A DNA stretch of 64,000 nucleotides, taken from assembly GCF_022429645.1 (NCBI RefSeq), contig NZ_CP092480.1, forward strand, positions 2,772,501 to 2,836,500, in the 5' to 3' direction. Below the pieces are notes generated by a model. It had not been told where the DNA came from, did no database searches, and was given only the letters and a program-made list of their open reading frames with translations. The translations under genes were made by a program, and so were the position numbers. Every line of letters starts with the position of its first letter. The stretch's first letter is position 1. Positions 13,865 through 26,924 of this stretch are shown one piece after another. The DNA comes from Lutibacter sp. A80 (GTDB taxonomy: Bacteria; Bacteroidota; Bacteroidia; Flavobacteriales; Flavobacteriaceae).

Positions 13865-15643
13865 ATGAAGCAATTATACCTATTACTTCTTTTACCTGTA
13901 TTTATGTTTTCTAATAATTCTGTTGAAAAGGACGAATTAAAAATAGCAAACGATAGTATTAAAAGCGTAAAAGTAGAAGTACAAGAATATATTGATTTTG
14001 CTTGGGATTATATTATGAAGGGGAATGATAGTGCTTTAATTTTTATTGAAAAAGCAATGGCGCTTTCTAAACAAAAAAACTACGCCATTGGTGAAGCAAT
14101 TACTTTTGAAACTGAGGGAATGTATTACGAAATTGTAAAATCTGATTATACCTTAGCAAGTCAATTATATTTTAAAGGTATTGAGGTTTGCGAAACTAAT
14201 AATTTAGAATATGCATCTTCAATCTATCATACATTAGGTGTTATGTTTCATCAATCAGATAGTTATGTAAAAGCATTAAAGTATTTTACCATTGCACATA
14301 ATTTAGCAACAGAATCTAATGACTCTATTCTTATTAAAATGTGTTTAATAAATCTTGGAAGTGTTAATTCTTCATTAGAAAATTTTGATACTGCTATTGA
14401 TTTTATGGAGGAAAGTTTAGCGTTTAAGATAAATATACGACAAGACCTTGATTATTCTACCTATTGCAATTTAGGTAACTTATATGTAAAACAAGAAAAA
14501 TATGATAAAGCTTTGCCTTATTTACTTAAAGCTACAGAACAGCATCCAGATAATTTTAATTCGGAAATAAATCTTCATTTTTTACTTCAATTAAAAGCTC
14601 TTACTAAAGATACTACTGGTATGAAACCTATTTTAAGAAGAGCAAAAGTTGCTTCTATAAATGCTGTACGTTTAAGAGAGCGAAGTTTATTATTAAGAAC
14701 CTTGGCAGATTATTATAAATCTACAGAAAATTATAAAGAAGCCATTAAATATAGAGATGAATATATAACTGCTTTTGAAGAAATTAAAGAAAAACAACGA
14801 GATGAAACAGTATATGAATTAGAGACAAAGTACGAAACCGAACAAAAAGACGCTCAATTACATTTATTAAAAGTAGAATCTGAAAAAAAAGAACAGCAAA
14901 AGCAACTATATTTTATTATGGCAATTTCGGGTTTGCTAATTGCAAGTATTCTTGGTTTTACAGTGAAAAAAAATATTCAGAAAAATGCTACTCTAGCCAA
15001 ACAAAAGAAATTGTTAGAAGCCGCTTTAAACGAAAAGAACACTTTATTAAAAGAAGTGCATCATCGTGTAAAAAACAGTTTTCAAATTGTTTCGTCATTA
15101 CTCTATCTTCAATCTGAAAACAGTGAAGATAAAGAAGCTAAAATAGCAATTAAAGAAGCCGAAAACCGAGTAAGATCTATGGTTTTGGTACATCAAAAAT
15201 TATATAATAAAGATGAATTAGTTGGTATTGACACCAAAGAATATATTACCGATTTAGTAAAAGATATTATTGACAGTCACCACTTTAAAGAAGAAAAAAT
15301 TAAGTACGAATTAAATATAGTATCTTTAGTTTTAGATATTGAAACTATTACTCCTATTGGATTAATATTAAACGAGCTGATTATAAACTGCTTAAAACAT
15401 GCGTTTAAAGAAGAAAAAAAGGGAAGTAAAATAATTGTAAGTTTTACTGAAGATAATAACAAATTGTTGTTAACGGTTAAAGATAACGGAAAAGGATTTG
15501 AAGGTGAAATTAAAAGCTCGTCGTTTGGTATTACATTAATGAAAGCCTTGTCTAAAAAACTAAAAGCAACATTGCAGTATAACTCTAAAGTAGGTATTGG
15601 TACAGAGGCAACTCTAAATATCAAAAAATTTAATATTTTATAA
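13865..15643 (+). CDS. TPR-containing sensor histidine kinase (HisKA_2 family)
   Basis: 592 residues. A signal peptide (QLYLLLLLPVFMFSNNS) is followed by TPR repeats (about 45-290, for example ALKYFTIAHNLATE and KALPYLLKATEQHP), a coiled coil, one transmembrane segment at about 348-368 (LYFIMAISGLLIASILGF), a HisKA_2 dimerisation domain with the phosphoacceptor box EVHHRVKNSFQ (His399/His400), and an ATPase domain with NELIINCLKHAF and DNGKGFEG. The TPRs should be periplasmic and the kinase cytoplasmic. The next gene on the same strand is a LytTR response regulator, the probable partner, 181 bp away with its own operator-like sequence. The signal sensed cannot be read. Confidence 0.9.
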   Translation: MKQLYLLLLLPVFMFSNNSVEKDELKIANDSIKSVKVEVQEYIDFAWDYIMKGNDSALIFIEKAMALSKQKNYAIGEAITFETEGMYYEIVKSDYTLASQLYFKGIEVCETNNLEYASSIYHTLGVMFHQSDSYVKALKYFTIAHNLATESNDSILIKMCLINLGSVNSSLENFDTAIDFMEESLAFKINIRQDLDYSTYCNLGNLYVKQEKYDKALPYLLKATEQHPDNFNSEINLHFLLQLKALTKDTTGMKPILRRAKVASINAVRLRERSLLLRTLADYYKSTENYKEAIKYRDEYITAFEEIKEKQRDETVYELETKYETEQKDAQLHLLKVESEKKEQQKQLYFIMAISGLLIASILGFTVKKNIQKNATLAKQKKLLEAALNEKNTLLKEVHHRVKNSFQIVSSLLYLQSENSEDKEAKIAIKEAENRVRSMVLVHQKLYNKDELVGIDTKEYITDLVKDIIDSHHFKEEKIKYELNIVSLVLDIETITPIGLILNELIINCLKHAFKEEKKGSKIIVSFTEDNNKLLLTVKDNGKGFEGEIKSSSFGITLMKALSKKLKATLQYNSKVGIGTEATLNIKKFNIL

Positions 15644-15737: not shown

Positions 15738-15803
15738 TTCACTAAAAAAACAACTACATTCACTTAATTTTTAAATTAAAAATAATTTTTTAGAGTACAT
15801 TTC
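15738..15803 (+). promoter_or_regulatory. Candidate LytTR operator and promoter upstream of the response regulator gene
   Basis: A direct repeat TTCACT (15738-15743) and TTCACT (15759-15764) has a 21-bp period, two helical turns, with an A7 tract between. A -7-like TACATTTC starts at 15796, exactly 58 bp after the first half-site. The same layout with the same 58-bp offset lies upstream of the giant surface-protein gene (16622). LytTR regulators typically bind paired direct repeats with about this spacing, so autoregulation is likely. The operator call is inference from matched architecture. Confidence 0.6.
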
Positions 15804-15824
15804 ATAAAAATTAATAAGAACTTT

Positions 15825-16514
15825 TTGAGATATTTAAATATATATATTGTTGAAGATGAACCTTTAATTGCTGCTACTATTAAAGCCGCCTTATTAAAGC
15901 AAGGTTACAATGTGGTAGGTGATGCCGAAGATGTTATAACCGCACTAAAAGATATTGCAATATTACAACCAGATTTAATTCTTGTAGATATTCAATTAGA
16001 TGGAAGTAAAGATGGTGTTGATTTAGCTCAGGAACTAGACAAGCAACAAACCCCTTATTTATACCTTACCTCACAAACAGATCCAGAAACTATACAACGT
16101 GTTAAAAATACCCAACCTTTAGGTTATATTGTAAAACCTTTTACCGAGCATAGTTTACGTAGTAATATTGAATTAGCTTGGCACACTTATGAGGTAGAAA
16201 ATGCAGGCTTTTTAATTATTAAATCAGAAGGGCGTACCTATAAAATTAACCAAAGTAGCATATTATACTTAAAAGCTTTTGACAATTATTGTTATATTTA
16301 TACTACTACCAGATCTTACCTTGTTCCACACACATTAAAGTATATGTCTGAAAAATTAAACGAGACCTTATTTATACAAACGCATCGTTCTTATTGGGTA
16401 AATATTAGTCATATTGATGGTGTGGAGAACAACAAACTTTTTTTAAAAACAGAACCTATTCCATTAAGTAATTCTCAAAAAAATATAGTAATGGATAAAA
16501 TAAAAAACACCTAG
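15825..16514 (+). CDS. LytTR-family response regulator
   Basis: 229 residues with a TTG start (TTG AGA TAT); no ATG or GTG precedes IYIVEDEPLIAATIK in frame. The receiver domain (1-125) has the acidic pair in VEDE, phosphoacceptor Asp55 in LILVDIQLDG and the conserved lysine in GYIVKPF. The LytTR DNA-binding domain (about 130-229) contains ILYLKAFDNYCYIYT and FIQTHRSYWVNISHI. It should dimerise on phosphorylation by the preceding kinase and bind direct-repeat operators. It lies between the kinase and the giant surface-protein gene, both of which it may control; a matching direct repeat precedes its own gene and the giant gene. Confidence 0.92.
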   Translation: MRYLNIYIVEDEPLIAATIKAALLKQGYNVVGDAEDVITALKDIAILQPDLILVDIQLDGSKDGVDLAQELDKQQTPYLYLTSQTDPETIQRVKNTQPLGYIVKPFTEHSLRSNIELAWHTYEVENAGFLIIKSEGRTYKINQSSILYLKAFDNYCYIYTTTRSYLVPHTLKYMSEKLNETLFIQTHRSYWVNISHIDGVENNKLFLKTEPIPLSNSQKNIVMDKIKNT

Positions 16515-16621
16515 TATTTCTACATACTATTTATTTTAAACTATTCAGTCAGTTACTTTAACTGCTTTTTTAGTAAGTATTTATGTTGTTAATTCTGCTA
16601 CAACGTATATCTCAAAATTCA

Positions 16622-16687
16622 TTCACTAAAAAAATGATTGCATTTACTAAAAACAATCTTTAATACTAATGTGAGCAAGTACATTTA
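16622..16687 (+). promoter_or_regulatory. Candidate LytTR operator and promoter upstream of the giant surface-protein gene
   Basis: TTCACT (16622-16627) and TTTACT (16643-16648) form a 21-bp-period direct repeat around an A7 tract. TACATTTA starts at 16680, again 58 bp from the first half-site. Over about 30 bp it matches the copy at 15738 in most positions, including 13 consecutive bases at the left end. The element lies 102-128 bp before the chosen ATG (16750). It implies control of the surface-protein/SprF operon by the neighbouring LytTR regulator; binding is not shown. Confidence 0.6.
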
Positions 16688-16749: not shown

Positions 16750-19700
16750 ATGAAAACAAAATTACTTTTATTACTAACGCTAACGCTATTTATTTTTAAA
16801 ACAAATGCGCAATGCACGGGCAATGTAAACATACCCAATGCAGACTTTAAAAACGCATTATTAAACAATCACACTATAGATTTAGATAATAACAACGAAA
16901 TATCTTGTACAGAGGCTTCAAACTATACTGGAGAGATAGATGTAAATAGTCTATATATTGATGATTTAACAGGTATAGAAGCTTTTATAAATATAACTTC
17001 TTTAATTCTTAACCGTAATTATTTAGAAGAACTAGATATATCTAAAAATACAGCTTTAACCTCTTTAAGTTTTAGTGATAATTATTTAACAAGTATAGAT
17101 CTTTCTAAAAATACAGCTTTAACTTATTTAAGTTGTGGTAATAACAAATTAACTAGTTTAGATGTGTCTAAAAACACCCAACTAGAAACATTATATGCTG
17201 GTAGTAATGAAGATTTAACAAGTTTAGATGTTTCTAGCAACACAGTATTAACAAAACTATACCTTCTTAATAATGAAGGTTTAACACAGTTAAATGTAGC
17301 AAATGGAAACAATTCAAATTTTGATACTTCAGTTTTAAATTTCAAAGGCACCACAGACTTAACTTGTATTAAAGTAGATAATACAGCCTTTGCAAATAAC
17401 AATTGGTCTAGTTTAAAAGATGCAACAGCACGTTATAGCGAAAACTGCGATACAACAGTAATACCAGATGCTAATTTTGAACAAGCATTAATAACTAAAG
17501 GCTTTGATTCAGGAAATCCAGATGGAACTGTGCCAACTGACAATATCAGTGGGATAGCTACCTTAAGTATTGAAGATAAAGAAATCTCAGACTTAACGGG
17601 TATAGAAGACTTTGTATCTTTAACTAGTTTATCAGTTTCAAATAATAACTTAACTAGCTTAGATCTAAGTAACAATACAGCTCTAACTGAATTAGATTGT
17701 AGTTATAATGATTTAACAAGTTTAGATGTAACTCAAAATAGTGCTTTAATTGATTTAAATTGTAGTTATAATGATTTAACAGCCTTAAATCTTGAAGGAA
17801 ATACAAATTTAAACATTCTAAATATATCCATTAACAATTTAATAAATGGTTTAGATGTATCTAAAAATACTGCTTTAACTCATTTATCAATTAATTTTAG
17901 CAACTTAGCAAGTATAGATGTAACTAAAAATATTGCTTTAGAGAGTTTATTTATCCCTCAAAATAATTTAACAAGTTTAGATGTATCTAAAAATACTGCT
18001 CTAACTAATTTACAATGTTATAAGAACAACTTAACCAGTTTAGATGTATCTAATAACACTGCTCTAACTGATTTAAATTGTTTCCAAAATAACTTAACTA
18101 CCATAGATTTACGAAACACAAATTTAAATAGTTTTACTGCAATTTTTAACCCAGATTTAATTTGTATTTCTGTTGATGATGTTAATGATATTCCCTATGG
18201 TTGGGCTAAAGAAGCAACTGCAGTTTACAGTGAAGATTGTAACGCAACAACCGCCATACCAGATGCTAATTTTGAACAAGCTTTAATAGATTTAGAAATT
18301 GATGATGTTATAGATGGAGCTGTTTTAACCGCAGATATAAGCGGAATAACCTCTTTATTAGTTCGTAATAAAAACATCTCCGACTTAACCGGTATAGAAG
18401 ACTTTATTGCTCTAGAAACTTTATATGTTGATAGAAATAACCTAACAAGTTTAGATGTTTCTAATAATACAGCTTTAGATTATTTGGTTTGTTCTGAAAA
18501 TAACTTAACTAGTTTAGATCTAAGTAACAATGTTGCTTTAACGAAGTTAAACTGTAATTTTAATAATTTAACTAGCTTAGATGTATCTGCAAATACTAGT
18601 TTAATTGAATTATATTGTACTTATAATAGTTTAACAAGTTTAAATATTGCTAACGGGAATAATTCAAATTTTAATCAAGATTACGATGGTTTTTATGCTT
18701 CCTTTACAAACAATCCAAACTTAACTTGTATTAAAGTTGATGATGCAACTTTTGCAAACACAAATTGGTCATCATTAAAAGACGCAACAGCAACGTATAG
18801 CGAAGACTGTGCAACAACTGCCATACCAGATACTAATTTTGAACAAGCTTTAATAGATTTAGAGATTGATAATGTCATAGATGGAGCTGTTCTAACAGCA
18901 AACATAAGCGGGTTAACTACATTAAATGTTAGCGATAAAAATATCTCTGAATTAACGGGAATTGAAGATTTTACTGCTTTAATAGCATTATCAGTTTCTA
19001 AAAATAACTTAACTAGTGTAAATCTGAGTAAGAATACAGCTTTAACAGATTTATATATAGGTGAAAACAACTTAAGTAGTATAGATCTAACTAAAAATAC
19101 AGTTTTAGCTCGTTTGGTTTTGGATGAAAATAACTTAACCAGTTTAGATATAACTAAAAACACAGATTTATCTTTATTTTATATTTCTGAAAACAACTTA
19201 AGTAGTATAGATCTAACTAAAAATATTGCTTTAGAGCTTTTACATATTCCTCAAAATAATTTAACAAGTTTAGATGTTTCTAATAATACAGCTTTAACTC
19301 AAGTTGTTATTGATGAAAATAACCTAACAAGTTTAGACCTCAGTAAGAATACAGATTTAATTATTTTACATGCAAATGATAATAACTTAACAAGTTTAGA
19401 TATAACTAAAAATACGGCTTTAGCTAACTTAAAAATTACTAAAAACAACTTAACAAGTTTAGATATAACTAAAAATACGGCTTTAGCTAACTTAAAAATT
19501 ACTAAAAACAACTTAACAAGTTTAGATATAAGTAATAATATAAATTTAGATGAGTTTGATGCCACAGACAATGCTAACTTAACCTGTATACAAGTTGATA
19601 ATGTTGCAAATATTGGAACCAATTGGAACAAAGACGCAACAGCAACGTATAGCGAAGATTGTGCAACAACTGCCATACCAGATACTAATTTCGAACAAGC

Positions 19701-22700
19701 TTTAATAGCTTTAGGACATGATAATGTTATGGATGGTGCTGTTCTTACCGCAAATATAAGTGGGTTAACTTCTTTAAATGTAAGTAATAAAAACATTGCA
19801 GACCTAACAGGTATTGAAGATTTTATTGCTTTAACTAGATTAGAAATTTATGACAACAATTTAACAACTGTAGATCTTAGTAATAATACAGATTTAGAAT
19901 ATTTAGATGTTTATGGAAATAGTTTAACAAGTATAGATCTTAGTAAGAATACTGATTTAAATTATTTAGAAATTAGTGAGAATAGCTTAACAAATGTAGA
20001 CCTTAGTAAGAATACAGATTTAGATTATTTCTATGCTGTTAACAATAACATAGCAACTGTAGATCTTAGTAAGAGTATTGATTTAATTAGTTTAAATCTT
20101 AGTGGGAATAGCTTAACAAGTATAGATCTTAGTAAGAATACGGATTTAATTGATTTAGATCTTAATGATAATAGCTTAACAAATATAGACCTTAGTAAGA
20201 ATACTGCTTTAAGACAGTTGTTTATTCATAATAATAGCTTAACAAATATAGACCTTAGTAAGAATACTGCTTTAACACAGTTGTATATTAAAAAAAATAA
20301 CATATCAAGCTTAGATATAAGTAAAAACACAAATTTAAATTGGTTTTATGCCACAGACAATCCTAATTTAACCTGTATACAAGTAGATAACGTTGCAAAT
20401 ATTGGAACCAATTGGGAAAAAGACGCAACAGCAACGTATAGCGAAGATTGTAGTGCTACTGTTGCACTTACTTATGTACCAGATAATAATTTTGAACAAG
20501 CATTAATAGACCAAGGCTACGATGATGTTTTAGATGATTATGTACTTACTGATAATATTAGTGGAATTACTAAATTACTACTCTTTAATAATGGCATTTC
20601 AGATTTTACAGGAATAGAAGATTTTATAGCTTTAACAGAGTTGATTTGTACTGGTAGTAATTCAACAAGTATCGATTTTAGTAAAAATACGGGTTTAATT
20701 AAGTTGAATATCTACAACAATAACTTAACATCTATAGATCTTAGTAAAAATACGGAGTTGACTGATTTAATTGCTTATAATAATAACTTAACAAGTATAG
20801 ATATTAGTAAGAATACCGCTTTAACAAAAATAAATTTAATTGATAATAACTTAACAAGTTTAGACCTTAGCAAGAATACTAGTTTAACTGATTTACATAT
20901 TCGTGAAAACAACTTAACAAGTTTAGACCTTAGTAATAATACTAATTTAATTAAAGTTGCTGCTAGTGAAAATAATTTGACTAACATAGACATTACCAAT
21001 GCAATTGATTTAATTGATCTAGACGTTAGTGAAAACAATTTAGCCAGTTTAAATATTACTAATAATACTGCTTTAACTGATTTAAATATTGATAGAAATA
21101 GCTTATCAAGTATAGATCTAACTAAAAATACGGCTTTAACTACTTTATATGTTTATGAAAATAACTTATCAAGTATAGATTTAACTAAAAATACGGCTTT
21201 AGATTTTTTAAATATTCAAAAAAATAATTTAACGAGTATAGATGTAAGTAAAAATATTGCTCTATTTAATTTATATATTAGTAAAAATAACTTAACAAGT
21301 TTAGATATATCAAACAATCTAAATCTAGATGAGTTTGATGCCACAGACAATCCTAATTTAACCTGTATACAAGTAGCTAATGTAAATAATATTGGACCTT
21401 ATTGGGAGAAAGATGCAACAGCAACGTATAGCGAAGATTGTAGTGCTACAGTTGCACTTACTTATGTACCAGATGATAATTTTGAACAAGCTTTAATAAA
21501 CCTAGGCTACGATGATGTTTTAGATGATTATGTACCAACCAATAATATTAATGGCCTAACTGATTTAGATGTAAGGGGTGAAAATATAGCAGACCTAACA
21601 GGGATTGAAGATTTTATTGCTTTAACTGTATTAGATATAAGTCTTAATGATTTAACAACTTTAGATGTAACTAAAAACACCGCTTTGACTCATTTATATG
21701 TTTATGACAATAACTTAACTAGTTTAGATGTAAGCAATAACACAGCTTTGACTAGTTTACCTGTTTATAAAAATAACTTAACTAGTTTAGATGTAACAAA
21801 AAACACAGCCTTAACTTATTTAAATGTAGGTGATAACAGCGGTCTATCAACATTGGATGTAACTAAAAACACCGCTTTAACTTATCTTTCTTGTTACGGG
21901 AATAGCTTAACGAGTATAGATTTAAGTAAAAATATTGCTCTATTTAATTTAGATATTCGTGAAAATAACTTAACAAGTTTAGATATATCAAATAATACAA
22001 ATTTAGATGAGTTTGATGCCACAGACAACCCTAATTTAACCTGTATACAGGTAGATAACGTTGCAAATATTGGAACTAATTGGGAAAAAGACGCAACAGC
22101 AACGTATAGCGAAGATTGTAGTGCTACAGTTGTACTTACTTATGTACCAGATGATAATTTTGAACAAGCTTTAATAGTTTTAGGGTACGATGATGTTTTA
22201 GATGATTATGTACCAACCAATAATATTAATGGCCTAACTGATTTAGATGTAAGGGGTGAAAATATAGCAGACCTAACAGGGATTGAAGATTTTATTGCTT
22301 TAACTGATTTAGATATTGCTATGAATAACTTAGCCAGTATAGATATCACTAAAAACACCGCTTTAACAGAGTTGGTTTGTTTTGAAAACAATTTTACTAG
22401 TTTAGATCTTAGTAAAAATACTGCACTTACCAAGTTAAGTGTAGATAGAAATAACTTAACAAGTTTAGATGTAACTAAAAATACCGCTTTAACCTATTTA
22501 AATAGTAGTGAAAATGAATTATCAAGCCTAGATGTAACCAACAATACCGCTTTAACTTTTTTAGTTTGTTATGACAACAACCTAACAGACTTAGACTTAA
22601 CTAGTAATACTCTTTTAACTGATTTAAGAGCTAATTACAATAATCTAGCAACCATAGATCTAAGCAAAAATATAGCTTTAGATAATTTAGAACTAATTAG

Positions 22701-25700
22701 CAATGCTTTAACTAGTATAGATGTAACTAAAAACACTGCATTAACAAGTTTAAAACTAAGTGCTGATGATAATTTATTGAGTAAAAACAATACTTCAAAT
22801 AAATTAAATAGTACAACTAATAACTTAACCGAATTAGATGTTTCAAAAAATACAGACTTAACAGGTTTATATGTTGATGGCAATAGCTTAACAAGTTTAG
22901 ATCTTAGTCAAAACACTTCTTTAAATACTTTATACTGTGCTAATAATAAGCTAACAAGTTTAAATATAAAAAACGGTAATAATTCCTCTTTATTTGGTTT
23001 AAAAGCAACCGGAAATCCATCGTTAACCTGTATACAAGTAGATAACGTTGCAAATATTGGAACCAATTGGGAAAAAGATGCAATAGCGAGTTATAGTGAA
23101 AACTGTGGAGAACTTATTGTAGATTGCTCAAACATAGAAAATACCCAATTAACTTGTAAAGCAGAGCTACCTTCCGAAGATGAAAGTTTACCAATAGTAA
23201 CAAATTCTGTTGGGGCTGTAACTATTTCTGTAGAAACAATTTCATCTAACAACTCTGGGTGTTTAGGAGATCCTCTAATAATAACCAGAACTTATACTAT
23301 TAGTGATGAAGGAGGCAATAGCGAAGAGTGTATACAGACCTTTACTGTTGAAAGCATAAACGAACCAACAATTAGTCCTGCTTTAACAACATATACCGAA
23401 GAATTAGATACTAATTGTGAATATCAAATTCCAGATTATACAACATTAGCAACTTCAACTGCAGATTGTGGAACAGCAACTATAACTCAAAGCCCAGCTG
23501 CTGGAACAATAATAAGTGAAGCAAAAGACACAGAAATTACGTTAACTGCAACAGATTCTTGTGGAAGAACAGCTACAACTAGTATTAGTCTTACAACTAT
23601 AGTTAATACCGAGTTAACAGTTATAACTAAAAATAACACAATACAATTAGATGCTTCTGGTGTTGCAAGCATAACAGCAAGTCAAGTAGATAATGGATCT
23701 AATGTTAGTTGTAATACTATAAGTTTAACAATAGATAAAACAACTTTCAATTGTTCAAATATTGGAGAAAATACAGTAACACTAACAGTAACAGGTACTA
23801 GTGGAAATAGCGCAACTGCAACAGCAATTGTAACTGTAGAAGATACCCTAGCACCAACTGTAATTACACAAAATATTGAAGTAGAGCTCAATGAAAATGG
23901 AACGTCAAGTATAGTAGCTGCTGATATTGATAATGGTTCTTCAGATAATTGTGAAATTGCTTCAATAACATTAGATAAAACTGAATTTGATTGTACTTCT
24001 GCTGGAGAGAATACGGTAACATTAACAGTAACTGATATTCACGGAAATTCTAATTCAGAAACTGCAATTGTAACAGTAGTTGATAAAACAGGACCAACAG
24101 CAATAGCACAAAATATAACAGCGCAGTTAGATGCATCTGGTGTTGCAATTATAACCGCTAACCAAATAGATAATGGTTCTACAGCTAATTGCGGTGCTGC
24201 AAATTTAACAGTAGATACAACAACTTTTAATTGTTCAAATATTGGAGAAAACACCGTAACATTAACAGTTACAGATGTTAGTGGAAATAGTGCAACTGCA
24301 ACAGCAATTGTAACTGTAGAAGATACCCTAGTACCAACTGTAATTACACAAAATATTGAATTAGAACTCAATGAAAATGGAACGTCAAGTATAGTAGCTG
24401 CTGATATTGATAATGGTTCTTCAGATAATTGTGAAATTGCTTCAATAACATTAGATAAAACTGAATTTGATTGTACTTCTGCTGGAGAGAATACGGTAAC
24501 ATTAACAGTAACTGATATTCACGGAAATTCTAATTCAGAAACTGCAATTGTAACAGTAGTTGATAAAACTGGACCAACAGCAATAGCACAAAATATAACA
24601 GCACAGTTAGATGCATCGGGTGTTGCAATTATAACCGCTAATCAAATAGATAATGGTTCTACTGCTAATTGCGGTGCCGTAAATTTAACAGTAGATACAA
24701 CAACTTTTAATTGTTCTAATATTGGAGAAAACACCGTAACATTAACAGTTACAGATGCTAGTGGAAATAGTGCAACTGCAACAGCAATTGTAACTGTAGA
24801 AGATACCCTAGCACCAACTGTAATTACACAAAATATTGAAGTAGAGTTCGATGAAAATGGAACGTCAAGTATAGTAGCTGCTGATATTGATAATGGTTCT
24901 TCAGATAATTGTGAAATTGCTTCAATAACATTAGATAAAACTGAATTTGATTGTACTTCTGCAGGTGAGAATACCGTAACACTAACAGTAACTGATATTC
25001 ACGGAAATTCTAATTCAGAAACTGCAATTGTAACTATAACTGAAACAGTTGCACCAGTGGCTAATTGCATTGCACCTTTTACACTTGCTTTAGATGATAC
25101 TGGAAATGCAACAATCACAGCGAATCAAATAGATAATGGAAGCACAGATAACTGTGGTATTGCTTCAATAAATATTGACAAAGAATCTTTTGATTGTTCA
25201 AATATTGGAGAAAACACCGTAACTTTAACGGTTACAGATGCTAGTGGTAATAAAGCTACTTGTACAACCGTAGTAACCATTGTAGATACAACACCTCCAA
25301 TTGTAATTACAAAAAATATATCGGTTGAATTAGATAGTAATGGAAATGCAGATATTACTACTTCCGATATTGATGATGGTAGTTTTGATGCGTGTGGAAT
25401 TGCTGCTATGAGTTTAGATCAAACAACATTCAGTTGCCCAACATTAACAGCGCATACATTAACTCTAACCGTTACAGATAATTATGGCAATACAGCTTCA
25501 GAAATTGCACTAGTAACCTTTACTTCTAGCGATATAGATAATGATACTATTGCAGATATATGTGATACTGATATAGACGGTGATGGTGTAGATAATGATA
25601 TTGATAATTGTCCAACTACAGCTAATAGTGATCAAGCAGATTTAGACCGAAATGGTATTGGAGATGTTTGTGATCAGAGTGATTTAAAAATTGCAAAAGG

Positions 25701-25950
25701 ATTTTCACCAAACGGAGATGGCGTAAATGATGAGTTTATTATAGAAGGACTTCATAATTACCCAAATAATAGTATACAAATCTACAACCGCTATGGAAAT
25801 ATTGTATACGAATCTAATAATTATCAAAATTATTGGGATGGTATTGGAAATAAAGAGGAAAGAAGACTCCCTGCTGCTCCGTACTTTTATGTACTTAGTA
25901 TTAATGGCGGAAGTAAAGTTGTTAAAGGATGGGTTTATATCAATTATTAA
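16750..25950 (+). CDS. Giant T9SS-exported surface protein: leucine-rich repeats, HYR-like repeats, TSP3, CHU_C
   Basis: 3066 residues from the chosen start. The signal peptide MKTKLLLLLTLTLFIFKTNA directly follows this ATG; an upstream in-frame ATG at 16687 would lie against the promoter box. Eight LRR modules follow, each opening with a cap like IPDANFEQALIDLGYDDV, then DLTGIEDF, then 21-residue repeats (NNLTSLDVSKNTALT), and closing with LTCIQVDNVANIG and TYSEDC. A cysteine-containing linker, eight HYR-like domains of about 80 residues, a thrombospondin type 3 calcium segment (DIDGDGVDNDIDNCP) and a CHU_C gliding-associated/T9SS type B signal (KGFSPNGDGVNDEF) complete it. It is expected to be anchored or released outside the cell as an adhesin. 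Its gene is followed 12 bp on by a PorP/SprF gene, as in sprB-sprF. The ligand is unknown. Confidence 0.93.
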   Translation: MKTKLLLLLTLTLFIFKTNAQCTGNVNIPNADFKNALLNNHTIDLDNNNEISCTEASNYTGEIDVNSLYIDDLTGIEAFINITSLILNRNYLEELDISKNTALTSLSFSDNYLTSIDLSKNTALTYLSCGNNKLTSLDVSKNTQLETLYAGSNEDLTSLDVSSNTVLTKLYLLNNEGLTQLNVANGNNSNFDTSVLNFKGTTDLTCIKVDNTAFANNNWSSLKDATARYSENCDTTVIPDANFEQALITKGFDSGNPDGTVPTDNISGIATLSIEDKEISDLTGIEDFVSLTSLSVSNNNLTSLDLSNNTALTELDCSYNDLTSLDVTQNSALIDLNCSYNDLTALNLEGNTNLNILNISINNLINGLDVSKNTALTHLSINFSNLASIDVTKNIALESLFIPQNNLTSLDVSKNTALTNLQCYKNNLTSLDVSNNTALTDLNCFQNNLTTIDLRNTNLNSFTAIFNPDLICISVDDVNDIPYGWAKEATAVYSEDCNATTAIPDANFEQALIDLEIDDVIDGAVLTADISGITSLLVRNKNISDLTGIEDFIALETLYVDRNNLTSLDVSNNTALDYLVCSENNLTSLDLSNNVALTKLNCNFNNLTSLDVSANTSLIELYCTYNSLTSLNIANGNNSNFNQDYDGFYASFTNNPNLTCIKVDDATFANTNWSSLKDATATYSEDCATTAIPDTNFEQALIDLEIDNVIDGAVLTANISGLTTLNVSDKNISELTGIEDFTALIALSVSKNNLTSVNLSKNTALTDLYIGENNLSSIDLTKNTVLARLVLDENNLTSLDITKNTDLSLFYISENNLSSIDLTKNIALELLHIPQNNLTSLDVSNNTALTQVVIDENNLTSLDLSKNTDLIILHANDNNLTSLDITKNTALANLKITKNNLTSLDITKNTALANLKITKNNLTSLDISNNINLDEFDATDNANLTCIQVDNVANIGTNWNKDATATYSEDCATTAIPDTNFEQALIALGHDNVMDGAVLTANISGLTSLNVSNKNIADLTGIEDFIALTRLEIYDNNLTTVDLSNNTDLEYLDVYGNSLTSIDLSKNTDLNYLEISENSLTNVDLSKNTDLDYFYAVNNNIATVDLSKSIDLISLNLSGNSLTSIDLSKNTDLIDLDLNDNSLTNIDLSKNTALRQLFIHNNSLTNIDLSKNTALTQLYIKKNNISSLDISKNTNLNWFYATDNPNLTCIQVDNVANIGTNWEKDATATYSEDCSATVALTYVPDNNFEQALIDQGYDDVLDDYVLTDNISGITKLLLFNNGISDFTGIEDFIALTELICTGSNSTSIDFSKNTGLIKLNIYNNNLTSIDLSKNTELTDLIAYNNNLTSIDISKNTALTKINLIDNNLTSLDLSKNTSLTDLHIRENNLTSLDLSNNTNLIKVAASENNLTNIDITNAIDLIDLDVSENNLASLNITNNTALTDLNIDRNSLSSIDLTKNTALTTLYVYENNLSSIDLTKNTALDFLNIQKNNLTSIDVSKNIALFNLYISKNNLTSLDISNNLNLDEFDATDNPNLTCIQVANVNNIGPYWEKDATATYSEDCSATVALTYVPDDNFEQALINLGYDDVLDDYVPTNNINGLTDLDVRGENIADLTGIEDFIALTVLDISLNDLTTLDVTKNTALTHLYVYDNNLTSLDVSNNTALTSLPVYKNNLTSLDVTKNTALTYLNVGDNSGLSTLDVTKNTALTYLSCYGNSLTSIDLSKNIALFNLDIRENNLTSLDISNNTNLDEFDATDNPNLTCIQVDNVANIGTNWEKDATATYSEDCSATVVLTYVPDDNFEQALIVLGYDDVLDDYVPTNNINGLTDLDVRGENIADLTGIEDFIALTDLDIAMNNLASIDITKNTALTELVCFENNFTSLDLSKNTALTKLSVDRNNLTSLDVTKNTALTYLNSSENELSSLDVTNNTALTFLVCYDNNLTDLDLTSNTLLTDLRANYNNLATIDLSKNIALDNLELISNALTSIDVTKNTALTSLKLSADDNLLSKNNTSNKLNSTTNNLTELDVSKNTDLTGLYVDGNSLTSLDLSQNTSLNTLYCANNKLTSLNIKNGNNSSLFGLKATGNPSLTCIQVDNVANIGTNWEKDAIASYSENCGELIVDCSNIENTQLTCKAELPSEDESLPIVTNSVGAVTISVETISSNNSGCLGDPLIITRTYTISDEGGNSEECIQTFTVESINEPTISPALTTYTEELDTNCEYQIPDYTTLATSTADCGTATITQSPAAGTIISEAKDTEITLTATDSCGRTATTSISLTTIVNTELTVITKNNTIQLDASGVASITASQVDNGSNVSCNTISLTIDKTTFNCSNIGENTVTLTVTGTSGNSATATAIVTVEDTLAPTVITQNIEVELNENGTSSIVAADIDNGSSDNCEIASITLDKTEFDCTSAGENTVTLTVTDIHGNSNSETAIVTVVDKTGPTAIAQNITAQLDASGVAIITANQIDNGSTANCGAANLTVDTTTFNCSNIGENTVTLTVTDVSGNSATATAIVTVEDTLVPTVITQNIELELNENGTSSIVAADIDNGSSDNCEIASITLDKTEFDCTSAGENTVTLTVTDIHGNSNSETAIVTVVDKTGPTAIAQNITAQLDASGVAIITANQIDNGSTANCGAVNLTVDTTTFNCSNIGENTVTLTVTDASGNSATATAIVTVEDTLAPTVITQNIEVEFDENGTSSIVAADIDNGSSDNCEIASITLDKTEFDCTSAGENTVTLTVTDIHGNSNSETAIVTITETVAPVANCIAPFTLALDDTGNATITANQIDNGSTDNCGIASINIDKESFDCSNIGENTVTLTVTDASGNKATCTTVVTIVDTTPPIVITKNISVELDSNGNADITTSDIDDGSFDACGIAAMSLDQTTFSCPTLTAHTLTLTVTDNYGNTASEIALVTFTSSDIDNDTIADICDTDIDGDGVDNDIDNCPTTANSDQADLDRNGIGDVCDQSDLKIAKGFSPNGDGVNDEFIIEGLHNYPNNSIQIYNRYGNIVYESNNYQNYWDGIGNKEERRLPAAPYFYVLSINGGSKVVKGWVYINY
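16960..23106 (+). repeat. Eight-module leucine-rich repeat region
   Basis: In-gene repeat region with a 63-bp (21-residue) period. Eight modules end at conserved (T/S/R)YSE(D/N)C-encoding sites near 17450, 18240, 18810, 19662, 20451, 21441, 22119 and 23106. Modules 6-8 share a longer cap (SATVALTYVPDDNFEQAL) and are closest to each other, which suggests they arose by the latest module duplications. Modules 1-3 are the most divergent. Confidence 0.9.
19384..19509 (+). repeat. Perfect tandem duplication of one 63-bp LRR unit
   Basis: Positions 19384-19446 and 19447-19509 are identical base for base and encode the same 21-residue unit (NNLTSLDITKNTALANLKIT plus K). A third copy begins at 19510 and diverges after about 21 bp. 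Identity at the nucleotide level, including third positions, points to a very recent slip or unequal crossover. Confidence 0.95.
23821..25040 (+). repeat. 480-bp tandem repeat encoding paired HYR-like domains
   Basis: Two nearly identical 480-bp units (23821-24300 and 24301-24780) and a partial third (24781 to about 25040), each encoding two HYR-like domains of 80 residues. The stretches at 23941, 24421 and 24901 are identical over at least 60 bp. Differences elsewhere are a handful of bases per unit. The period is a whole number of codons, so copy-number change keeps the frame. Confidence 0.95.
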
Positions 25951-25961
25951 GAAAAATAGAA

Positions 25962-26924
25962 ATGAAAAATATAGTAAAACAATTCGTAATTATAAGTGCC
26001 TTTTTAGTAATTGTAAAAAGTAATGCACAACAAGATCCGTTATATACACAATATTATAATAATTTTAGCTTAATTAATCCTGCCTACTCTGGTAGTCATG
26101 GATTGTTTACAGCCACCGCTAATATTAGAAGTCAATGGGCTGGAGAAGCTGGAAGTCCAGAAACACAAACCTTATCAATACATGGTGCTACTGGTAAAAA
26201 TGTAGGGCTGGGTTTGTCTATTGTTAATGATAAGGTATATGTTTTAAAAGAAACTGACATTTATGCCGATTTTTCTTACTCTATTTATCCAAATGAAAAT
26301 TCAACATTAGCTTTTGGACTAAAAGTAGGAGGTAGTTTTTTAGATGTAAACTTGTTAGAATTAGGTGTTCAAAATGATGATCTTTTTAGTGAAAACATCA
26401 GTGAATTTAATCCAAATATAGGAGCGGGAATGTTTTATTACACCAATCGATTTTTTGTAAGTTTATCTACAGTAAATATTTTAGAAAGCAAACATTACGA
26501 TAAAAACAGTTCCGTAGTTTCTAGCGCTTCAGATGAAATGATTTTTTATATATCTTCTGGATACGTTTTTAATTTAAATGAATCTTTTAAACTAAGACCT
26601 TCATTTATGATGCGAGCAGTAAATGGAAGTCCGTTATCTACAGATATTTCAGCAAGTATATTATGGTTAGATAAATTAGAGTTCGGAATTTCACACAGAA
26701 TTGATGAATCTATCTCTGGTCTTTTTCAACTTAGATTAACAGATAATTTAAAAGTTGGATACACTTACGATGCTATTACCAATAACCTTTCTAATTATAG
26801 CAATGGATCGCATGAATTTTCTGTCATTTTAAATCTAGGAAAAAACAAAAATAATCATAAAAGACAACCACCACTTTATTGGATGAAAAAGAAAAATTCT
26901 GAAGAAATTCTATTAATTGAATAA
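25962..26924 (+). CDS. PorP/SprF family type IX secretion membrane protein
   Basis: 320 residues from the chosen ATG at 25962; an in-frame ATG at 25929 lies inside the preceding gene and would place 11 extra residues before the signal peptide (MKNIVKQFVIISAFLVIVKSNA). The mature start QQDPLYTQYYNNFSLINPAYSG is the family signature, followed by an outer-membrane beta-barrel ending in EFSVILNLG. SprF is known to be needed for secretion or attachment of the giant adhesin SprB, and PorP/SprF paralogues usually sit beside CHU_C proteins. With a 12-bp gap to the giant gene, it is very likely that protein's dedicated partner. Confidence 0.93.
   Translation: MKNIVKQFVIISAFLVIVKSNAQQDPLYTQYYNNFSLINPAYSGSHGLFTATANIRSQWAGEAGSPETQTLSIHGATGKNVGLGLSIVNDKVYVLKETDIYADFSYSIYPNENSTLAFGLKVGGSFLDVNLLELGVQNDDLFSENISEFNPNIGAGMFYYTNRFFVSLSTVNILESKHYDKNSSVVSSASDEMIFYISSGYVFNLNESFKLRPSFMMRAVNGSPLSTDISASILWLDKLEFGISHRIDESISGLFQLRLTDNLKVGYTYDAITNNLSNYSNGSHEFSVILNLGKNKNNHKRQPPLYWMKKKNSEEILLIE

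What the first reader, a model, noticed from the sequence alone, without database searches (positions are those of the whole stretch)
15738..16687. Two promoters with the same LytTR-like operator and identical spacing
Upstream of both the LytTR regulator gene and the giant surface-protein gene lies TTCACT-N15-TT(C/T)ACT, a direct repeat with a 21-bp period around an A7 tract. In both, AGTACATTT follows with TACATTT starting exactly 58 bp after the first half-site (15738 to 15796; 16622 to 16680). The flanks are otherwise not similar, so the match points to selection on binding and spacing. LytTR proteins generally bind paired direct repeats about two helical turns apart. Inference: the regulator controls itself and the surface-protein/SprF operon.
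Basis: partly seen in the sequence, partly recalled or inferred. Interest (0 to 1): 0.75.

Follow-up and report, generated by a model that had tools for sequence, protein, structure and literature searches.

The report
Conserved LytTR switch for surface proteins
Two promoters carry the same paired control sequence, which recurs beside the same regulator gene in many flavobacteria, so the regulator very probably switches on both itself and a large cell-surface protein.

Summary
In detail: sites at 15738 and 16622, with TACATTT 58 bp after each. The operator is TTYACTAAA-N12-TTYACTAAA, which is LytTR geometry. Among 38 regulator loci (the window's own and 37 orthologues, 43-80% identical), a site lies within 250 bp upstream of the regulator gene in 23, downstream in 32, either in 36. 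Shuffles gave 4 and 9 of 1900; nine distant paralogue loci had none. TAnnTT, the sigma-A -7 box, starts 37 or 38 bp after the second half-site's start at 50 of 55 sites. A strict form occurs in 12 of 397 family genomes, all among the 27 with an orthologue at E<=1e-50. Most likely the regulator binds here and activates its own gene and the adjacent surface-protein operon. Targets differ between species: LRR/type IX proteins, S74 or YadA-head fibre-like proteins and, in one genus, short units without an ORF. Nothing was tested in the laboratory. It is a new member of a known kind (LytTR operators); nine searches of the held library found no report of it.

The parts
13865..15643 (+). sensor histidine kinase (TPR repeats, HisKA_2, HATPase_c), probable partner of the regulator
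   Evidence: Pfam PF07568 E 1.5e-25, TPR_12, HATPase_c; a kinase homologue stands beside the regulator in the long loci that hold the regulator
15738..15746 (+). operator 1, distal half-site TTCACTAAA, followed by an A run
15759..15767 (+). operator 1, proximal half-site TTCACTTAA (one departure from TTYACTAAA), 21 bp after the first
15796..15802 (+). -7 box TACATTT of the regulator promoter (TAnnTTTG-like); predicted transcription start about 15808
   Evidence: position conserved in 50 of 55 sites; sigma-A box at -12..-5 from PMC9723704, passages
15825..16514 (+). LytTR response regulator (receiver + LytTR domain), probable TTG start
   Evidence: Pfam Response_reg and LytTR; at the aligned place 18 of 38 loci have TTG, 8 ATG and 3 GTG
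16622..16630 (+). operator 2, distal half-site TTCACTAAA, followed by an A run
16643..16651 (+). operator 2, proximal half-site TTTACTAAA, 21 bp after the first
16680..16686 (+). -7 box TACATTT (TACATTTA) of the surface-protein promoter; predicted transcription start about 16692
16750..25950 (+). giant surface protein (3066 aa from the likely start; LRR, HYR, PKD, TSP_3, CHU_C type IX signal); ORF opens at 16687
25929..26924 (+). PorP/SprF family protein, overlaps the end of the surface-protein gene, probably same operon
   Evidence: Pfam PF11751 E 4.1e-72; overlap

Best explanation
The two sites are operators for the LytTR response regulator encoded at 15825-16514. The adjacent TPR/HisKA_2 histidine kinase senses an unknown signal and phosphorylates the regulator (inferred from gene order and domains). 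Two regulator molecules then bind the direct repeat TTYACTAAA-N12-TTYACTAAA (inferred from LytTR biology). The repeat spans about -70 to -41 of a sigma-A promoter that has a -7 box but no conserved -33 box, and the bound regulator helps RNA polymerase to start (inferred). Two promoters are switched on together: the regulator's own, giving positive feedback, and that of the neighbouring surface-protein/SprF operon. Shown here by sequence: the sites, their spacing, their conservation beside orthologues but not beside nine distant paralogue loci, and the confinement of the strict form to genomes with the regulator in the sample searched.
For: Sites beside orthologues: 23 of 38 upstream, 32 of 38 downstream, 36 of 38 either, against 4 and 9 of 1900 shuffles; 0 of 9 and 0 of 9 beside distant paralogues. 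Repeat period 21 bp in 50 and 20 bp in 5 of 55 sites. TAnnTT at +37 or +38 from the second half-site in 50 of 55, against a mean of 0.66 and a maximum of 3 at any other offset from 9 to 71; the box was not used to pick the sites. Strict operator in 12 of 397 genomes (16 places), all 12 among the 27 with an orthologue at E<=1e-50; the reversed pattern hit once (hypergeometric 6e-16, not corrected for relatedness; the pattern was derived from loci of the same genomes). Geometry matches published LytTR sites: two repeats of 9-11 nt with 11-13 nt between (PMC4847170); 9-12-9 repeats 4-11 bp upstream of -35 in S. mutans (PMC6193735); AgrA repeats near -60 (PMC4227749). Of 24 proteins behind or near sites in relatives, 19 have secretion, adhesin or fibre-type domains.
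Against: No binding or expression data. 15 of 38 loci lack a site directly upstream of the regulator and 6 of 38 lack one directly downstream; L040 and L042 lack both. Five of 55 sites lack the box. The -7 box before the regulator is more variable than that before targets. TTG in the -33 region is slightly above chance (9 of 40; shuffled mean 4.2 or 5.4 by the stretch taken), so some of these promoters may have a -33 element. Two genomes without an orthologue at that cut-off, G233 and G290, each show an exact TTYACTAAA-N12-TTYACTAAA match without the A-run, in a list that was cut. Not every site has a surface-type target: of the 24 proteins, 4 match no family and 1 is DNA polymerase I, and the sites in L154 and L162 stand before no such gene.
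Confidence: 0.86

Rival explanations
1. The repeats are operators of this regulator, but the regulator represses rather than activates, lifting repression when phosphorylated.
For: Sequence alone does not give the sign; the slight TTG excess at the -33 place (9 of 40 against 4.2 or 5.4 shuffled) would allow intrinsic promoter activity at some sites.
Against: The proximal half-site ends 28-29 bp upstream of the -7 box, so it does not cover that box; a -33 box is not conserved; LytTR repeats just upstream of promoters activate in S. mutans (PMC6193735) and S. aureus (PMC4227749).
Confidence: 0.07
2. The repeats are bound by a different regulator, or act as intrinsically curved, phased A-tracts (UP-like elements) without a specific protein.
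For: A-runs usually follow each half-site at a 21-bp period; that such phasing can bend DNA is recalled knowledge.
Against: Inside the half-sites C, T and A positions are nearly invariant (C and T of ACT 55 of 55 in half-site 1), which curvature does not need; strict sites were confined to genomes with this regulator and were missing beside nine paralogous LytTR loci.
Confidence: 0.05
3. The second promoter is a recent copy of the first, so the shared motif reflects duplication and not selection.
For: The motif parts are 29 of 32 identical between the two promoters.
Against: Outside the motif identity falls to 15 of 43, and to 41 of 137 in the upstream flank, both without gaps; sites on both sides of the regulator recur in 19 of 38 loci with different spacer letters.
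Confidence: 0.02

Closest known systems
YpdA/YpdB-yhjX of Escherichia coli (PMC4847170, passages read)
   Same: LytTR response regulator with one direct target named; direct repeat of GGCATTTCAT, which resembles the (C)ATTCACT half-site here
   Different: LytS-type kinase system, another target and other repeat letters; here the regulator's own promoter also carries the operator and the target is a surface protein
HdrRM/BrsRM LytTR regulatory systems of Streptococcus mutans (PMC6193735, passages read)
   Same: 9-12-9 direct repeats (e.g. ACCACTTAT-12-ACCGCTTAT) just upstream of the core promoter, controlling the regulator's own operon and separate targets
   Different: Those regulators pair with a membrane protein; here the neighbour is a histidine kinase and the regulator has a receiver domain
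LRS-like operons of Bacteroides thetaiotaomicron and B. ovatus (PMC6193735, passages read): nearest in phylum
   Same: Direct repeats upstream of a TGTA/TGTG-19-TATCTTTG promoter of a LytTR gene
   Different: 11-bp repeats of other letters (TCCGGTATTCA-11-ACCGGAAATCA), regulator with transmembrane segments, a -33 box named; predicted there, and not in Flavobacteriaceae
AgrAC/agr P2-P3 of Staphylococcus aureus (PMC4227749, passages read)
   Same: Two-component LytTR activator on direct repeats upstream of promoters, near -60
   Different: Quorum sensing (recalled); unrelated targets
remFG-sprCDBF adhesin operon of Flavobacterium psychrophilum (PMC9723704, passages read)
   Same: Adhesin secreted by type IX with SprF as the target; TAnnTTTG -7 box biology
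   Different: There two promoters with sigma-54 and SM5 motifs were predicted and supported by mutagenesis; the word LytTR does not occur in the main text

Membership tests
LytTR operator | two repeats of 9-11 nt separated by 11-13 nt | tested here: met
   9-12-9 in 50 and 9-11-9 in 5 of 55 sites; definition from PMC4847170, passages
LytTR operator | associated with a LytTR-domain regulator gene | tested here: met
   PF04397 E 3.4e-20; a site beside 36 of 38 orthologous loci; strict sites only in genomes with an orthologue
LytTR operator | lies just upstream of the core promoter | tested here: met
   the -7 box starts 37-38 bp after the start of the second half-site in 50 of 55
LytTR operator | bound by the LytTR protein | not testable with these tools
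   needs gel shift or footprint
Sigma-A promoter of Bacteroidota | -7 box TAnnTTTG | tested here: met
   TAnnTT in 50 of 55; of the 28 downstream sites with the box, 21 read TAnnTTTA and 3 TAnnTTTG; the upstream ones vary
Sigma-A promoter of Bacteroidota | -33 box TTG | tested here: inconclusive
   no conserved columns there; TTG in 9 of 40 against 4.2 or 5.4 shuffled
LRS (LytTR regulator plus membrane protein) | LytTR regulator co-encoded with a membrane protein in place of a histidine kinase (PMC6193735 passages; lack of a receiver domain recalled) | tested here: not met
   the window regulator has a receiver domain and a HisKA_2 kinase neighbour
SprB/SprF-type type IX adhesin unit | large protein with a type IX signal (CHU_C) followed by SprF | tested here: met
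   CHU_C E 3.5e-27 and PorP_SprF E 4.1e-72; adhesion or gliding role not tested

The most novel reading that the evidence does not exclude
A surface-display cassette spread through the family. A sensor, a LytTR regulator and an operator-promoter of fixed design are kept while the surface-protein gene behind them is exchanged between species (type IX LRR proteins, S74 or YadA-head fibre-like proteins). In one genus the same operator also drives a two-hairpin RNA of about 60-75 nt with no open reading frame beside the cassette, so the switch would act on the cell surface both through a protein and through a small regulatory RNA.
Probability: 0.4. Interest if true: 0.72.

Novelty: new member of a known kind. 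Interest (0 to 1): 0.52.

Why it matters
Regulators of this kind appear to be common in Flavobacteriaceae (the protein matched in 54 of 60 relatives, many with ten or more hits, some to the receiver domain only), but nine searches of the held library turned up no operator sequence for one in that family; most subscription journals are not in it. This gives an exact, testable operator with a defined place relative to the -7 box and a named regulator, and it ties control of large exported proteins to one two-component system in 21 genera of the sample. Because regulator and operator stay while the surface protein changes, the locus offers a clean way to ask what signal makes these bacteria change their surface. 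The candidate LytTR-driven small RNA, if real, would be an unexpected second output.

Tried and rejected
TTYACTAAA-N12-TTYACTAAA at up to 3 mismatches in the own genome (358 hits against 337 control, uninformative) and at up to 1 mismatch in 397 genomes (many matches by chance, list cut). A solved structure close to this LytTR domain: one weak match, 3d6w, E 0.0006, so no structural model of DNA contact was built. Rfam on four loci, L062, L064, L065 and L075: only a tRNA, no family at the candidate small RNAs. Literature: nine searches; in passages of four flavobacterial papers LytTR is mentioned only in passing.

Considered and rejected: recent duplication of one promoter (ungapped flanks differ); A-tract curvature alone (invariant C and T positions). 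Not rejected: that the short units are relics of lost surface-gene cassettes. In L227 (G482) operator and terminator lie between genes of the same sizes as elsewhere, without regulator or surface gene, and its copy of the 5' hairpin (row L207) is partly broken.

The second orthologues of G136 and G121 listed were not given loci there and are not among the 38. Of the 22 loci (L060-L070) were used. The nine paralogue loci (L003-L008, L057-L059) are the next best matches; the further loci L009-L030, L071-L074 and L076-L081 were not tested for sites. Targets of L065-L067, L070 and L164 were not scanned with Pfam.

Full report
Observation. Both sites are present at the stated places and TACATTT starts 58 bp after the first half-site in each. 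In the window the pattern has 2 matches against 0.07 expected. Over the whole 3.93-Mb genome the loose pattern TTCACT-N15-TTYACT has 5 matches and its reversed control 7, so the loose pattern by itself proves nothing. With the A-run added (TTYACTAAAAA-N10-TTYACTAAA) the genome holds 10 matches at up to 2 mismatches against 3 for the control, and the only two at 0-1 mismatch are the window sites. The two promoters agree at 29 of 32 motif positions, 15 of 43 other positions of the 75-bp stretch, and 41 of 137 positions upstream, ungapped.

Surroundings. The order is TPR/HisKA_2 kinase (13865-15643), operator 1, LytTR response regulator (15825-16514), operator 2, giant surface protein with LRR, HYR, PKD, TSP_3 and a CHU_C type IX signal, then a PorP/SprF protein. 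The surface-protein ORF opens at an ATG (16687) that directly follows TACATTT; the start at 16750 is more likely, leaving a leader of about 58 nt.

Comparative test. Orthologues of the regulator were gathered by protein similarity only, without reference to the motif: the window's own locus, the best locus of each of the 26 other family genomes with E<=1e-50 (L031-L056) and L060-L070, 38 in all, the 37 others 42.6-79.9% identical. A site of at least 16 of 18 positions starts within 250 bp upstream of the regulator gene in 23, downstream in 32, on either side in 36 and on both in 19. First-order shuffles gave 4 and 9 of 1900; nine loci of more distant paralogues (under 42.5%) gave 0 and 0, their shuffles 1 and 0 of 450. 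The period is 21 bp in 50 and 20 bp in 5 of the 55 sites. By genus label 21 of the 22 genera in the family sample have an adjacent site. Downstream misses: in L040/L042 (G132, G342) a site stands before a surface gene that precedes kinase and regulator; in L050/L051 (G176, G370) the kinase follows the regulator and the second site follows the kinase; L033 (G121) has two divergent sites on another contig, before a YadA-head protein and a protein without a family; L047 is unexplained.

Spacing. TAnnTT starts 37 or 38 bp after the start of the second half-site in 50 of 55 sites; other single offsets from 9 to 71 hold on average 0.66 and at most 3. From the first half-site this is 58 bp (26 sites), 59 (21) or 57 (3, period-20 sites). 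The box was not used to choose the sites. PMC9723704 (passages) places the sigma-A box TAnnTTTG at -12 to -5, so the operator runs from about -70 to -41. Of 28 downstream promoters with the box 24 read TAnnTTTA or TAnnTTTG, while the regulator's own boxes vary. A -33 box is not a conserved column, though TTG there is somewhat above chance (9 of 40; shuffled mean 4.2 or 5.4).

Exclusivity. The strict pattern without mismatch is found in 12 of 397 family genomes, 16 places; all 12 are among the 27 genomes with an orthologue at E<=1e-50, none among the other 370, and the reversed control hits once. The hypergeometric figure of 6e-16 ignores relatedness, and the pattern was drawn from loci of these genomes. 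With the shorter pattern at up to 1 mismatch chance matches dominate (169 of 397 genomes), and two genomes without such an orthologue (G233, G290) each show an exact match in the cut list. In the window's own genus only G019 of 36 other genomes searched has a close orthologue (1.8e-150; the next best 4.3e-33), so the locus is accessory there.

Targets. Besides the window, 24 proteins behind or near sites in relatives were scanned with Pfam. Nineteen have type IX signal, LRR or receptor-L, galactose-binding-like, Peptidase_S74, YadA_head or Collar domains. Four match no family (L062:10838, L160:2234, L165:4733, L168:4218), and L161:10225 is DNA polymerase I, the next gene after the regulator of G121, which has no site downstream. 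Several target genes were not scanned (see Tried and rejected).

Short units. In L063, L064 and L065 a further site, about 3-6 kb from the regulator, is followed by a -7 box and, some 37 nt after the predicted start, by a terminator hairpin with the loop GTAGGG; no closed reading frame there exceeds 8 codons. A search of 68 genomes of one genus found 8 with half-site and loop at this distance, reversed control 0; 7 of the 8 are among the 14 genomes with the regulator at E<=1e-60. The pattern was built from those three loci, and L204, L210 and L211 print the same letters as L065, L064 and L063, so five of the eight are new. The alignment of 8 folds into two hairpins, 3 of 18 pairs with changes on both sides, but the covariation term is near zero (-0.03). 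Four single sequences fold better than shuffles (z -3.8 to -5.6), in large part through the terminator (my reading). In 7 of 9 long loci of this genus a surface-type or neighbouring gene ends with the same kind of terminator, so a relic of a lost cassette remains possible; L227 (G482), with operator and terminator but no regulator, points that way. A similar unit with another loop lies in L075/L169.

Mechanism. Published LytTR sites (PMC4847170, PMC6193735, PMC4227749; passages) are two repeats of 9-11 nt with 11-13 nt between them, upstream of the promoter, and the cited cases activate. (The AgrA paper also names a site downstream of one promoter that represses, bsaA.) Geometry, place and gene neighbourhood fit activation. 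Binding, phosphorylation by the adjacent kinase, and activation are inferred. In the LytTR domain, orthologues share F or Y at residue 152 (38 of 38), against D or E in 8 of 9 paralogues; this is compatible with another specificity but was not linked to DNA contact.

Verdict. It is a new member of a known kind. No report of this operator was found with nine searches of the held library, which lacks most subscription journals.

Noticed in passing
window 16750-25950 and L163:6775-15990: Between the window genome and its close relative G019 the regulator is 99% identical and the surface protein mostly 89-100% at its ends, but in the middle (alignment columns about 700-2200) identity per 100 columns falls to about 50-85% with several long gaps: a fast-diverging stretch.
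   Followed up: partly
L063:14364, L064:16624, L065:13549, L204-L211: LytTR-type operator and -7 box followed some 37 nt after the predicted start by a terminator with loop GTAGGG and no open reading frame over 8 codons: candidate small RNA or empty cassette in one genus.
   Followed up: partly
L227:9662-9790 (G482): Operator, -7 box and terminator stand alone between genes of the same sizes as the usual neighbours, without kinase, regulator or surface gene: looks like a locus from which the system was lost (homology of the neighbours not tested).
   Followed up: partly
L063:14574-17095: A second kinase and response-regulator pair (51% and 45% identical to the window pair) lies directly behind an operator and its terminator, suggesting that one system may feed another.
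   Followed up: no
downstream promoters of L031, L032, L044, L060-L067, L070: The start of these target transcripts shares GCTATTAAT(C/T), which is not seen in the 15 regulator promoters listed; purpose unknown.
   Followed up: no
L228:8832-9407 (G494): The regulator gene is shortened (match covers residues 5-183 of 229, so part of the LytTR domain is missing) although operators remain nearby.
   Followed up: no
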